This document shows positions 36,533-43,005 of a stretch of 64,000 bases of DNA, one piece after another (within the stretch, counting starts at the first letter, position 1; every line of letters starts with the position of its first letter). The notes under the pieces were generated by a model that was given only the letters and a program-made list of their open reading frames with translations, was not told the DNA's origin and made no database searches. The stretch lies in NCBI RefSeq assembly GCF_030824335.1, contig NZ_JAVBXX010000007.1:124001-188000 (forward strand). The letters are read 5' to 3'. Position numbers and translations under genes: made by a program. Origin of the DNA: Azonexus sp. (GTDB lineage Bacteria; Pseudomonadota; Gammaproteobacteria; Burkholderiales; Rhodocyclaceae).

Positions 36533-38908
<2,376 letters not shown>

Positions 38909-38943
38909 TTTTTGCGGTCGACCGTGAAAATTCGGTAAAAACG

Positions 38944-38973
38944 AGAAAGGCCGGGAGCGATCCCGGCCTTTCT
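38944..38973. terminator. Terminator shared by ppsA and the TPR gene
   Basis: Perfect 13-bp stem (AGAAAGGCCGGGA / TCCCGGCCTTTCT) with a GCGA loop, between convergent stops. Confidence 0.85.
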
Positions 38974-38985
38974 GTCATCGGGTGG

Positions 38986-41133
38986 TCAGGTGTTGGATGG
39001 TCGATTGCCTTGGTACTCCGCCCAAAGCCGGTCTACCAATTCACGGAAGCCAATGTCTTCGGGAATCGAATGTTGAGCGATGTCGTCGAGCGTACCTTTG
39101 TAGAGCATTTCACCGCCGTTCTCACCCGCAGCCAGCGCGTTGTGGAAAGCTTGTTCAACCGCCTGTGGCTTGCCCAGGAGCCATTGAACATAGGCCAGAT
39201 TTCCCAAAGCCATTCCCCATTGCGGTTTTCTCTTCAAGCAACCTTGCAGGCTTTCCTTAGCCCACGTCAGATAATCGAGAGCGAGATCCCGGTTCGTCCA
39301 GTTTTTCTTGGCAAGCAATAGGTGACTAAAGCCCTTGCCATTCATAGTTTTGGCGACCAGTTCGCGGAGTGCGGGAGTTTTGTCGTCGGCGTAGGTGGCG
39401 ATCAACTGGTCGTAGAGGGCGATTGCCTCTTCGTTTTTCTCCATTTTCCCGAGTGTGACCGCCTTGTTGGACATGGCTTTAGCGACTAGCTCGCGGAGTG
39501 CGGGAGTCTTGTCGTCGGCGTAGGTGGCGATCAACTGATCGTAGAGGGCGATTTCCTCTTCTTTTTTCTCCATTTTTCTGAGCCGGACCGTCTTGTTGAA
39601 CATGGCTTGAGCGACCTGCTCGCGGAGTGCGGGAGTTTTGTCGTCGGCGTAGGTGGCGATCAACTGGTCGTAGAGGGCGATTGCCTCTTCGTTTTTCTCC
39701 ATTTTTCCGAGTGTGACCGCCTTGTTGGATATGGCTTTAGCGACCAGCTCGCGGAGTGCGGGAGTTTTGTCGTCGGCGTAGGTGGCGATCAACTGGTCGT
39801 AGAGGGCAATTTCCTCTTCGTTTTTCTCCATTTTCCCGAGTGTGACCGCCTTGTTGAACATGGCTTGAGCGACTAGGTTGCGGAGTGCGGGAGTTTTGTC
39901 GTCGGCGTAGGTGGCGATCAACTGGTTGTAGAGGGCGATTGCCTCTTCGTTTTTCTCCATTTTCCCGAGTGTGACCGCCTTATTGGACATGGCTTGAGCG
40001 ACCAGGTTGCGGAGTGCGGGAGTTTTGTCGTCGGCGTAGGTGGCGATCAACTGGTCGTAGAGGGCAATTTCCTCTTCGTTTTTCTCCATTTTCCCGAGTG
40101 TGACCGCCTTGTTGAACCTGGCTTGAGCGACCAGGTTGCGGAGTGCGGGAGTTTTGTCATCGGCGTAGGTGGCGATCAACTGGTCGCAGAGGGCGATTGC
40201 CTCTTCGTTTTTCTCCATTTCCCCGAGCAGGACCGCCTTGTTGCCCATGGCTTTGGCGACCTGTTCGCGGAGTGCGGGAGTATTGTCGTCAGCGTAGGTG
40301 TCAATCAACTGGTCGTAGAGAACGATTTCCTCTTCGGTTTTTCCCATTTGTCCGAGCGTGAATGCCTGGTTAAAGATCGCCTGTGCTGAGTTAACTAAGC
40401 TTGCCGTCGGGACTTTAGTTGCCTTTTCCCAATACAGGGTTGCCTCTTCCAGTTTTCCTGCTTTGTAGGCGGCGAACGCCCGTGTATTCCAGTCATCGAA
40501 TGAATAGTTGTTTTCAGGAATGTCTTTTAGCTCGTCTGTGCGGCGAAGAAGTGTTTTGGTATCTTTGTCGTTATCTGGATTTGGCGATGTATCCGATTGC
40601 ATAAGGCCAATGGTCTTCTGCGTTCTTTCAATGACGGCTTGTGCTTCTGTCGCGCTGTCTTGAACGCTCTGGACAGAGTGGTTGATGTTGTCGCGTGCAT
40701 GGGAATGAAGTGAATCAATCTTGGCTCGTAGTTCTTTTTCGTTTTCAGCAAACCAGTTGCTAGCGGTTTCCTTAGCCTCACGCTTGGCTTTTGCGACTAC
40801 TGAGAAATAGCCTACCAAACCGCCAGAAGCAAGAAGAACGGTGATCAGAATGCTGATCCACCCGCTGATAGCGGTGAAGCGGTCGACAGCGTTACCAATA
40901 TCGCTCACCCGGTTTACCTGATCGTCAATCCGCTTGTCGATGGCATCGAGGCGCTTCCACTGTGCCTCGATGTCTTTTTGCAGCAACTCTCTACCACTAT
41001 CGATCCTCAGTTGTAACAGCTCTTTTTGCGCATCAAGGTCATCCTTGTTTATTTCAGCAGCAACTGATGGCAGAGCACAGGTGAGCGAGAAGCTGATGAT
41101 CATCAGGCGCACGAAGTTGAGTGGGGAGGGCAT
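38986..41133 (-). CDS. Membrane-anchored TPR-repeat protein with tandem 43-residue repeats
   Basis: A 715-residue protein: signal-like N-terminus (cleavage near PSVAA, residue 26), a predicted coiled coil (about 30-85), a membrane segment (88-113, SGWISILITVLLASGGLVGYF), a second charged helical stretch (115-175), then eight TPR-like units of 43 residues (about 263-607) and a C-terminal tail. Units read MEKNEEAIALYDQLIATYAD followed by DKTPALRELVAKAMSNKAV with few changes. The ATG at 41133 is preferred over GTG 41178 because it starts the signal peptide. Function is unknown; a scaffold role is usual for TPRs. It is bounded by direct repeats, suggesting acquisition. Confidence 0.8.
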   Translation of the reverse strand: MPSPLNFVRLMIISFSLTCALPSVAAEINKDDLDAQKELLQLRIDSGRELLQKDIEAQWKRLDAIDKRIDDQVNRVSDIGNAVDRFTAISGWISILITVLLASGGLVGYFSVVAKAKREAKETASNWFAENEKELRAKIDSLHSHARDNINHSVQSVQDSATEAQAVIERTQKTIGLMQSDTSPNPDNDKDTKTLLRRTDELKDIPENNYSFDDWNTRAFAAYKAGKLEEATLYWEKATKVPTASLVNSAQAIFNQAFTLGQMGKTEEEIVLYDQLIDTYADDNTPALREQVAKAMGNKAVLLGEMEKNEEAIALCDQLIATYADDKTPALRNLVAQARFNKAVTLGKMEKNEEEIALYDQLIATYADDKTPALRNLVAQAMSNKAVTLGKMEKNEEAIALYNQLIATYADDKTPALRNLVAQAMFNKAVTLGKMEKNEEEIALYDQLIATYADDKTPALRELVAKAISNKAVTLGKMEKNEEAIALYDQLIATYADDKTPALREQVAQAMFNKTVRLRKMEKKEEEIALYDQLIATYADDKTPALRELVAKAMSNKAVTLGKMEKNEEAIALYDQLIATYADDKTPALRELVAKTMNGKGFSHLLLAKKNWTNRDLALDYLTWAKESLQGCLKRKPQWGMALGNLAYVQWLLGKPQAVEQAFHNALAAGENGGEMLYKGTLDDIAQHSIPEDIGFRELVDRLWAEYQGNRPSNT
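39340..40371 (-). repeat. Eight tandem 129-bp coding repeats
   Basis: The landmark GTCGTCGGCG or a one-base variant recurs at 39382, 39511, 39640, 39769, 39898, 40027, 40156 and 40285, always 129 bp apart. Units alternate between a GATTGCCTC and an ATTTCCTC form, so the array is built of 258-bp dimers. Confidence 0.95.
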
Positions 41134-41421
41134 GATATCTGGGCGATTGTAGGTATCGCTGGGTATGACAAGAGCCACTGATTATGCCATCCGCTCAGTA
41201 TTGGGTGCAGAAAGATCTGGTGCGCTTGGTTCGGATTCGTGAGACCGCCCGCAACTCTTGCACCTGGATGTTGAGCGTTTCGACGAGATGCAGCGGCTTG
41301 ACCATCCGTCCCATGAGCTTCTCCTGATGGATAGTGAGCGTTACGACTTGCCGGAAGCCTTGCTTTCTGGTTGCCGCGGGACTGGGCAAACGAATCCTGT
41401 TCACCGCATTGCTGGCTGAAG
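41134..41421. other. Gene-free stretch upstream of the TPR gene
   Basis: No convincing gene is seen. It must hold the TPR gene promoter (reading leftward), but no clear -35/-10 pair was found. Open frames here lack family resemblance and ribosome sites. Confidence 0.5.
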
Positions 41422-41514
41422 ACGCGGTTGGCGACGCACAAAAAGGGCTGATTTTCACGGTCGACCGTGAAAATTCGGTAAAAACGAGAAAGGCCGGGAG
41501 CGATCCCGGCCTTC
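41422..41514 (+). repeat. Direct repeat copy 2 (ppsA 3' end remnant and terminator)
   Basis: Matches 38878-38970. It still encodes TRLATHKKG-stop with two synonymous changes (CTG/TTG, CAT/CAC). A 24-bp perfect palindrome is formed at 41452-41475 (half site ATTTTCACGGTC). Confidence 0.85.
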
Positions 41515-41518
41515 TTTT
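41491..41518. terminator. Second copy of the ppsA-type terminator
   Basis: AAGGCCGGGA / TCCCGGCCTT stem with GCGA loop and CTTTT after it. It now lies 154 bp beyond the stop of the glycine-zipper gene. The stretch 41519-41671 between them shows no gene. Confidence 0.7.
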
Positions 41519-41671
41519 GTCTGTTGGTTAATTGATAGCCTACCTCTGCTATTCGGCCAGAGTCTCCGCTAAGCTCGGTCATGCCGCATGGCCTGCGACT
41601 CACAGTTTCGCCAAATGTTGAGTCGGTGCTCCGCCCAGCGCCCGTTGCACCAGGCCGGATCCGGCTGCTAG

Positions 41672-42139
41672 TTAGTAGCCAGCCATATTGCCGCCCACGA
41701 TACTGCCAAGCACCGCGCCAACTGCGGTACTTACGACGCGGCCATTTCCGTTGCCGAACTGGTTGCCAATAAGCCCACCCGTTACGGCGCCGATGGCTTG
41801 TCCCGCGAAGCGGTTCGTGTTGTCGTACTGATAGGGGGCGGGCCGTTCCACATAGCGAGGCGCTGGCTGCGAATAGACACGCGGCTCCTCTTGATAGTAA
41901 ACCGGGCGATCGCGGTATACAACGCGTTCACGATAGGCCACGGGCGGAGGCGCATAGGCCACTGGTGCTGCCTGATAAATTACGTGCGGCGCCTCGTACA
42001 TTGGTTGCACCATGACCCGCTCAATCCGATGACGATGGTGGCGCCCCCTGTGATCGCCGTCATCCCAACGGTGATCGGCAAAGACATTGGCGCTGAAAAG
42101 GGTGCTGGCGATTGCGGCTGGAATCCATAGCTTGTTCAT
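41672..42139 (-). CDS. Exported glycine-zipper (2TM) protein
   Basis: A 155-residue protein with a signal peptide (MNKLWIPAAIASTLFSANVFA), then a His/Arg-rich stretch (DHRWDDGDHRGRHHRHR), a Tyr/Pro/Val/Arg-rich central region, and a C-terminal glycine zipper (AIGAVTGGLIGNQFGNGNG...AVGAVLGSIVGGN) that can form two close-packed membrane helices, as in Rickettsia 17-kDa-antigen-like proteins. AGGAAAAATC precedes the ATG at 42139; the longer frame upstream is rejected. No lipobox cysteine is seen. Probably envelope-associated; function unknown. Confidence 0.8.
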   Translation of the reverse strand: MNKLWIPAAIASTLFSANVFADHRWDDGDHRGRHHRHRIERVMVQPMYEAPHVIYQAAPVAYAPPPVAYRERVVYRDRPVYYQEEPRVYSQPAPRYVERPAPYQYDNTNRFAGQAIGAVTGGLIGNQFGNGNGRVVSTAVGAVLGSIVGGNMAGY

Positions 42140-42343
42140 GATTTTTCCTGAAAGAAAAAGGTGTCTGTCAGCTATAACGCACTCGCTCGGGGGTTGGCTT
42201 ACAGGAGCAAGGTAAGAATTTGTAACCACGCTACCCACAAGTCGCATCCATCTGCATCTCCGCCAGATTTAGATGCGGCCGCCAGGCTAGGGGCCGAATC
42301 TGGTTTCGATGCGGTGGGCCAGTTAATGAGGGAGCGTCATTAA

Positions 42344-42844
42344 TTACAACCCAGCCAGATCTTTGCGCATGCGCTCGATTCGCTGTTGTTCTACGTCGAT
42401 CTGAACGCTGTATTTTTGGGTAACCGCCTGCATTTCCACGGAGATGCTTTGTTCCAGCGTTGCGCCGGCGAGGTTGTTGTTGGCTAGGGATTTTCGTGCC
42501 CTCAGTATTGCCAATTCACTATCCATCTGCTGTTCCAGGCCGGAGATGCGGTTCTCGCTGAGCTCTATTTCATAACGCAATTCTGCGCGACGTCTTTCCT
42601 TCTCTCTTGCGGCAAGGTACTCCTTGTCGCGCCGAAGTCGAGCAGCGGTTTCTGTTTCTTGCGGCTGAGTGGCGGGAGATTCAGGCGGTGGCGCCTTGGG
42701 CAAGGGCGAATCGGGTGGTGCCTGTGCAATGCATGGTTTGTCCTGATAAACGTAACCGGACGATTTCTTGCACTTGTAGGCGGCAGATGCAGGGAAGGAA
42801 AGCACACTTGCCAGCAATGCGGCGATCAGGGTTCTCGTGATCAT
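42344..42844 (-). CDS. Exported DUF4124-type protein with coiled coil
   Basis: A 166-residue protein with a signal peptide ending SFPASA, then the short DUF4124 start (AYKCKKSSGYVYQDKPC with two of its Cys), a Pro-rich linker (about 42-62) and a long charged coiled coil (about 65-165). Such proteins are common in betaproteobacteria and of unknown function. 42140-42343 upstream of the glycine-zipper gene shows nothing else. Confidence 0.72.
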   Translation of the reverse strand: MITRTLIAALLASVLSFPASAAYKCKKSSGYVYQDKPCIAQAPPDSPLPKAPPPESPATQPQETETAARLRRDKEYLAAREKERRRAELRYEIELSENRISGLEQQMDSELAILRARKSLANNNLAGATLEQSISVEMQAVTQKYSVQIDVEQQRIERMRKDLAGL

Positions 42845-43005
42845 TTATGGCCTCGTCAAGATGAGTCGATTATCCTCAGTAATTCTCCGCTCAAGCAATC
42901 AGCATTGGGTTTTTTACGATCCGTCTCATTTTTTGCGGTCGACGACAAAATACAGCCAAAAACCTCTGGGCTTCGAAAAATCATGGTTTTGCAAGTGTAC
43001 GTACA

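What the first reader, a model, noticed from the sequence alone, without database searches (positions are those of the whole stretch)
39340..40371. Near-identical TPR repeats built from alternating two-unit blocks
Eight 129-bp units alternate strictly between NEEA (even) and EEE (odd) forms at the same position, so the array grew by 258-bp dimers. High DNA identity implies recent expansion or gene conversion, and the number of units probably varies between strains, changing the length of the repeat solenoid.
Basis: seen in the sequence. Interest (0 to 1): 0.6.

Follow-up and report, generated by a model that had tools for sequence, protein, structure and literature searches.

The report
Membrane-anchored protein with expanding TPR repeats
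This bacterial gene encodes a protein, apparently anchored in the membrane, whose spring-like arm is built from eight near-copies of one 43-residue module, and relatives in other species carry from none to fifteen modules, so the arm appears to be lengthened, shortened and homogenised by recombination while its presumed binding face keeps varying.

Summary
The array is real: eight 129-bp units, 39352-40383, minus strand, inside a 715-codon gene (41133-38986). The E/A switch alternates 8 of 8; a second site (F versus S/G) alternates too. Units 3-6 and 8 are 92-98% identical; unit 1 only 77-82% like the rest. The longest exact repeat lies at offset 258, favouring a two-unit duplication, but 8 of 12 shared-variant columns cut across parity and permutation p is 0.03-0.11: dimer growth is plausible, not the whole story. 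The gene belongs to a mainly betaproteobacterial family: signal-like N-terminus, coiled coil, one membrane helix, coiled coil, n x 43-residue TPRs, usually a C-cap. Unit number runs 0-15 among relatives. In 81 of 98 units the nearest unit is in the same protein: concerted evolution. Duplicated blocks look like 1, 2, 3 or about 7 units. Within-array diversity concentrates at TPR positions 2, 5, 9, 13 (ligand face), with neutral-like N:S. This resembles the internally conserved repeats of fungal NLRs, but without NOD or effector domain. Ligand and function are unproven; strain-level variation was not testable.

The parts
38986..41133 (-). whole gene, 715 codons, ATG start (an upstream GTG at 41178 is an alternative start)
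   Evidence: relatives align from the ATG
41056..41133 (-). signal-sequence-like hydrophobic N-terminus (residues 1-26)
   Evidence: hydropathy peak residues 7-25; AxA-like end read by eye; model helix 4-18
40795..40851 (-). predicted transmembrane helix, residues 95-113, with more K/R after it (4) than before (1)
   Evidence: helix 95-177 in the model, its first part at low confidence
40384..40503 (-). conserved SFDDWNTRAFAAY cap, a TPR-like helix pair before unit 1
   Evidence: D214, W215, N216, R218 invariant in 15 sequences; helices 212-224 and 228-239
40255..40383 (-). unit 1 (EEE form), diverged
40126..40254 (-). unit 2 (EEA form)
39997..40125 (-). unit 3 (EEE form)
39868..39996 (-). unit 4 (EEA form)
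39739..39867 (-). unit 5 (EEE form), 98% identical to unit 3
39610..39738 (-). unit 6 (EEA form)
39481..39609 (-). unit 7 (EEE form)
39352..39480 (-). unit 8 (EEA form)
38989..39351 (-). C-terminal cap, further TPR-like helices with a GNLAYV...LYKGTLDDI...W core
   Evidence: conserved in relatives; helices 615-710 at high pLDDT
38878..38970 (.). ppsA 3' end plus terminator-like palindrome, copy A
41421..41513 (.). second copy (96%) of the ppsA 3' end plus palindrome, upstream of the TPR gene

Best explanation
The gene encodes a member of a family of membrane-anchored TPR proteins: signal-like N-terminus, short coiled coil, one membrane helix, second coiled coil, then a TPR superhelix of n 43-residue units, usually closed by a C-cap. 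Shown by sequence and model: this architecture, the 0-15 range of unit number between species, and concerted evolution of units. Inferred: the array faces the cytoplasm; recombination or slippage between 129-bp direct repeats (129 = 3 x 43, so any whole-unit change keeps the frame) adds, removes and converts units, in blocks whose size differs between lineages, and in this genome the last detectable duplication was probably a 258-bp dimer. Inferred: the superhelix binds a peptide or protein in its groove, unit number and the few variable residues on helix A set reach and specificity, and the anchor holds this scaffold at the inner membrane. The ligand is unknown.
For: Array and frame. TPR by Pfam and by fold: OGT TPR domain Z 21.9 (rmsd 5.5 over 343), 8-repeat consensus TPR Z 20.7 (4.5 over 272), kinesin light chain 1 Z 17.9 (3.8 over 236). 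Relatives: 4 of 76 genomes of the genus, own included; 28 named loci, which include the genomes seen as G023, G039, G069, G152, G206, G300 and G418. A membrane-helix peak in 28 of 29 rows (27 of 28 named loci plus the window protein; the exception L107 lacks its N-part); K/R more frequent after it than before in 25 of these 28, equal in 3. Unit counts 0-15, spacing 43 in every neighbouring pair but one. Nearest unit within own protein 81 of 98; longest exact repeats 109, 432, 251 and 340 nt at offsets 258, 258, 129 and 258 in the window, L090, L091 and L097. Within-array diversity at TPR positions 2, 5, 9, 12, 13 is 0.487 against 0.215 elsewhere; these positions are named as variable and ligand-facing in PMC1261162 (passages).
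Against: Positive selection on the groove is not shown: replacement changes there are 0.72 of all, 0.76 expected under neutrality, p 0.925, so relaxed constraint explains the variation as well. The p values for groove positions (0.030 for the seven published positions, 0.0005 for the five in helix A) came after I had seen the per-position table, and the five-position subset is my own choice. Unit residue 11 (TPR 12) is not among the most variable, while residues 9, 16 and 19, outside the published set, are. Dimer evidence is weak. No neighbouring gene gives a function. Topology rests on hydropathy and charge only.
Confidence: 0.66

Rival explanations
1. A structural spacer or spring: the repeats only set the length or elasticity of a membrane-tethered scaffold, without a specific ligand; groove residues vary because nothing constrains them.
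For: N:S at groove positions is neutral-like; unit number differs even between species of one genus; two relatives with 0 units keep the anchor and a C-cap-like end (L115, L117).
Against: Groove-side positions vary more than the other unit positions, and the C-cap and SFDDWN cap are conserved, which suggests a partner at least at the ends.
Confidence: 0.35
2. A recognition receptor, like the internally conserved TPR/WD/ANK repeats of fungal NLRs: repeat shuffling keeps changing specificity against a non-self molecule, for example one of phage.
For: Evolutionary signature like that in PMC4986451 (passages): internal conservation, repeat-number change, variation on the helix-A face. Patchy presence: 4 of 76 genomes of the genus, 3 of 51 among those at least 90% complete and at most 5% contaminated. 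Of 20 neighbour proteins scanned from 8 of the 28 named loci, 13 had Pfam matches, 4 of them defence- or phage-like: HEPN_AbiU2 and RES near L092, Imm11 near L099, phage capsid near L104; one IMG/VR contig matches.
Against: No NOD, effector or enzymatic domain found; PADLOC gives only a TPR-size match; the other 9 Pfam-matched neighbours are ordinary (chemotaxis, TonB receptor, SelO, FdhE, TamB, PBP and the like); no excess of replacement changes; no match in 50,697 phage records.
Confidence: 0.15
3. The array is partly an assembly artefact: unit number in the source strain differs from 8.
For: Tandem repeats are hard for short reads, as PMC12222747 states for fungal arrays (abstract); the sequencing method of this genome is unknown to me.
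Against: Units differ and the longest exact repeat is 109 nt, within reach of common read lengths; the contig is 334,783 bp and the frame is open; the single-contig relative G023 shows the same kind of array.
Confidence: 0.08

Closest known systems
Highly internally conserved TPR repeats of fungal NLRs (Dyrka et al. 2014, PMC4986451; passages seen)
   Same: Near-identical TPR units, differing unit number, concerted evolution, variation on the ligand-facing side
   Different: Those proteins carry a NOD and an N-terminal domain; there the variation is within species and positively selected; here a bacterial membrane anchor, no NOD, between-species data only, no positive selection shown
42PR-type TPRs (kinesin light chain, PMC5642895 passages; the Podospora 42PR protein is recalled)
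   Same: TPRs longer than 34 residues with longer helices; the Podospora protein has high internal identity (recalled)
   Different: Unit is 43 residues here, with a 20-residue helix A and a 15-residue helix B in the model
Domain-repeat expansion by multi-domain duplication (Bjorklund et al. 2006, PMC1553488; passages seen)
   Same: Duplication of several units at a time, two being the commonest unit overall in that survey
   Different: That survey found repeats mainly in eukaryotes; this is a prokaryotic example with several block sizes in one family

Membership tests
TPR superfamily (alpha solenoid) | Repeats match the TPR profile | tested here: met
   TPR_1 56.2 bits against a 27.8 cut-off; TPR_6, TPR_12, TPR_10 and others also above cut-off
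TPR superfamily (alpha solenoid) | Two antiparallel helices per unit stacked in a superhelix | tested here: met
   Regular helix pairs from 246 to 581 in the predicted model, Z about 20 with solved TPR superhelices
42PR class | 42-residue unit with longer helices than the 34-residue TPR | tested here: inconclusive
   Spacing is 43 in all neighbouring unit pairs but one; helices longer than in 34-residue TPRs; class definition seen only as passages of another paper
NLR / STAND receptors with internally conserved repeats | NOD ATPase domain (NACHT or NB-ARC) | tested here: not met
   No such match in Pfam or NCBIfam
NLR / STAND receptors with internally conserved repeats | Concerted evolution and unit-number variation | tested here: met
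   81 of 98 units nearest to their own protein; 0-15 units; between species only
NLR / STAND receptors with internally conserved repeats | Positive diversifying selection at concave positions | tested here: not met
   More variable, but N:S not above neutral expectation; a simple count, not a codon model
Known anti-phage defence proteins (PADLOC-DB 2.0.0) | Specific family match | tested here: inconclusive
   Only PDC-M01B, 33.7 bits, best stretch 448-514 inside the TPRs

The most novel reading that the evidence does not exclude
A stand-alone, membrane-tethered bacterial recognition receptor that uses the same diversification engine as the sensor repeats of fungal NLRs: near-identical TPR modules shuffled by recombination, with specificity held in a few helix-A residues per module.
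Probability: 0.13. Interest if true: 0.75.

Novelty: new variant of a known kind. Interest (0 to 1): 0.42.

Why it matters
It offers a small, single-gene bacterial system in which repeat-number evolution of a solenoid can be followed across species: the same anchor with 0 to 15 modules, apparently duplicated in blocks of different size. If the groove binds a ligand, module number and helix-A residues give a natural series for studying how solenoid specificity evolves; if not, it is a natural molecular ruler.

Tried and rejected
Recent mobile insertion behind ppsA, suggested by the 93-bp duplicated ppsA end: the three other genomes of the genus that have the gene carry it at the same place, so it is not peculiar to this genome. 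Of the 69 genomes of the genus with a ppsA match, 30 loci were fetched and read, own included; in the 29 others neither the anchor nor the C-cap part was found within the flank (at most 1.5 kb). The origin of the duplication remains open.

RNA families in 38800-43000: none at gathering score. Solved relatives by sequence: none at E 0.001. Phage records: no match. Plasmid records: 18 of 72,556, all under 60% identity, none covering 80% of the protein. NCBIfam hits are far under cut-off; PHROGs hits are five families of unknown function, each matching a short stretch inside the repeats. Conserved neighbours: in a clustering of reading frames of 29 loci, groups in four or more loci were the gene itself, frames antisense to it, and the neighbourhood shared by the four Azonexus-Dechloromonas loci; several groups in three loci exist (for example the SelO gene in L095, L107 and L111) and groups in two were not printed; I did not follow these further.

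General dimer preference over the family: rejected (Stouffer z 0.51, 15 arrays). Positive selection at the groove: tested, not shown; unit residue 4 alone has 21 replacement to 5 silent changes (ratio 1.78, p 0.17). pN/pS per array is 0.32-1.07.

Rows dropped: arrays with fewer than 4 units, and the first, diverged unit of each array. L107 was left out of the tree because its N-part is missing. L101 and L104 reach the contig end and L103 meets a stop inside the repeats, so their counts are lower bounds. Unit counts rest on a score threshold of 45 that I chose. The 3-unit (L094) and 7-unit (L116) blocks were read from identity tables without a permutation test of that lag.

Papers: nine searches were answered and in the titles and abstract starts that they listed I saw none on this bacterial family; that is not a full search, and most subscription journals are not held.

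Full report
What was checked. The array lies on the minus strand in a 715-codon gene, 41133-38986. Eight units of exactly 129 bp run from 40383 down to 39352; TRF and a repeat finder agree. The gene gives one protein match in its own genome. Unit residue 19 alternates E/A and residue 4 alternates F versus S/G through all eight units. DNA identity is 77-98%; unit 1 is clearly diverged.

Was it built of dimers? For: the longest exact repeat is 109 nt at offset 258, against at most 61 at other offsets; lag-2 identity is 0.916 against 0.897 at lag 1. Weak or against: of 12 columns where a minority base is shared by two or more units, 4 respect parity and 8 do not; order permutations give p 0.030 (all units) and 0.112 (without unit 1) for the parity statistic, 0.035 and 0.058 for strictly alternating columns, and 0.077 for lag 2 over lag 1. 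Probably at least one dimer duplication happened, with conversion or point changes on top.

Relatives. In 76 genomes of the genus, 4 have the gene at E 1e-20, own included. In 395 genomes of the family 27 match; four of these (G418, G300, G152, G206) I showed to have the anchor and C-cap, while the alignments listed for most others cover the TPRs alone and were not followed. In the alignment of 15 the SFDDWN cap and the C-cap core are conserved. Hydropathy finds a membrane-helix peak in 28 of 29 rows, the exception being L107 without its N-part; a further hydrophobic peak near the N-terminus passes the threshold in 24 of the 28. K/R are more frequent after the helix than before in 25 of 28 and equal in 3, so the array is placed in the cytoplasm by inference. 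Three Achromobacter loci end without the C-cap, and a search of these and of L101, L103 and L104 with three C-caps found none.

Unit number. Counting 43-residue units over 28 loci and the window gives 15, 11, 8, 8, 7, 7, 6, 6 and lower, down to 0 in two Methylobacter (full list there). Within genera: Achromobacter 11, 6, 4; Azonexus-Dechloromonas 8, 7, 7, 4; Vogesella 4, 3; but Zoogloea 2, 2, and Methylobacter 0, 0. On an anchor-domain tree the three Achromobacter, with 11, 6 and 4 units, group together (support 82/91). Spacing is 43 in all neighbouring pairs but one (41, L110).

Concerted evolution. In 15 arrays with four or more units, 81 of 98 units have their nearest unit in their own protein; of the 17 exceptions 8 are in the three Achromobacter arrays and 5 in L102. 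Window and G023 units are on average 82.8% alike (best pair 86.8%), below the 87-98% among window units 2-8. Block size seems to differ: two units in Dechloromonas SSD3 (432-nt exact repeat) and Gallionella (340 nt), one unit in Dechloromonas CZR5 (251 nt), three in L094 (units 2-3 like 5-6), about seven in L116 (units 4-7 like 11-14). Over the 15 arrays there is no general preference for two: p for lag 2 over lag 1 is 0.017 (L112), 0.038 (L090), 0.059 (L097), 0.077 (window), 0.086 (L092), above 0.4 in the other ten; Stouffer z 0.51.

Structure. AlphaFold2 with 15 sequences: mean pLDDT 86.2, pTM 0.69; residues from about 210 to 710 mostly above 90, the membrane region low. Each unit has a 20-residue helix A, which begins in the end of the preceding unit, and a 15-residue helix B. 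The best solved matches are TPR superhelices; a shared fold shows no function.

Where variation survives. Pfam TPR_1 aligns residue 551 to profile position 1, so unit residue j is TPR position j+1. Mean within-array difference is highest at unit residues 1, 4, 8, 9, 19, 16, 12, that is TPR positions 2, 5, 9, 10, 20, 17, 13. Positions 2, 5, 9, 12, 13, 33 and 34 are the variable, concave positions in PMC1261162 (passages); I had written that set down from memory, after seeing the per-position table. The seven give p 0.030; the five in helix A, my own subset, p 0.0005, and p 0.0006 without the window, L090 and L091. N:S at the five is higher than elsewhere (98:39 v 335:282, p 0.00013) but not above neutral expectation. 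So this face is free to vary, or mildly diversified; selection for change is not shown. I had no model coordinates, so 'groove' rests on the published numbering. Of the two alternating sites in the window, residue 4 is TPR position 5, in the published set; residue 19 is TPR position 20, normally a small core residue (recalled).

Context. In the four genomes of the genus the gene lies next to and convergent with ppsA (window). Elsewhere neighbours differ. Of 20 neighbour proteins scanned from 8 loci that I picked, 13 had Pfam matches: 4 defence- or phage-like, 9 ordinary. One viral-collection contig matches, of the same length as the Curvibacter contig of L104. This is a hint only.

Literature. 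PMC4986451 (passages) describes near-identical TPRs in fungal NLRs with unit-number polymorphism and positively selected concave positions. PMC1553488 (passages) describes multi-domain duplication as the common mode. PMC5120217 (abstract) describes accelerated evolution of repeats within proteins. PMC12222747 (abstract) warns about short-read assembly of such arrays. The bacterial family here looks like a new setting for a known mode of repeat evolution.

Verdict. Observation confirmed; dimer mechanism partly supported; strain variation untested; function inferred. Not an NLR by test, though it shares part of how such repeats evolve.

Noticed in passing
38878-38970 and 41421-41513: The ppsA 3' end with its palindrome is present twice, 96% identical, on both sides of the TPR gene; G023 (L017 4555-4897) has a longer decayed ppsA 3' fragment on the matching side.
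   Followed up: partly
L092, L094, L099: Three Achromobacter members stop about 15-20 residues after the last counted unit; no C-cap was found by tblastn in these loci.
   Followed up: partly
L115, L117: Two Methylobacter relatives have the anchor and a C-cap-like end but no TPR unit that passes the threshold.
   Followed up: no
L104 / L148: The Curvibacter copy lies near a phage capsid gene; the only viral-collection hit is on a contig of the same length, 21,568 bp, so this may be one contig held in both collections.
   Followed up: partly
genera g55 and g62 of the family: Many genomes of small size there carry other long TPR arrays, often several, that match by the repeats only; they may be a different repeat family.
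   Followed up: no
41672-42247: The gene beside the TPR gene (glycine-zipper-like, by eye) is close in only two other genomes of the genus (G005 80%, G024 57%), of 76 searched; the other matches are short and weak.
   Followed up: partly
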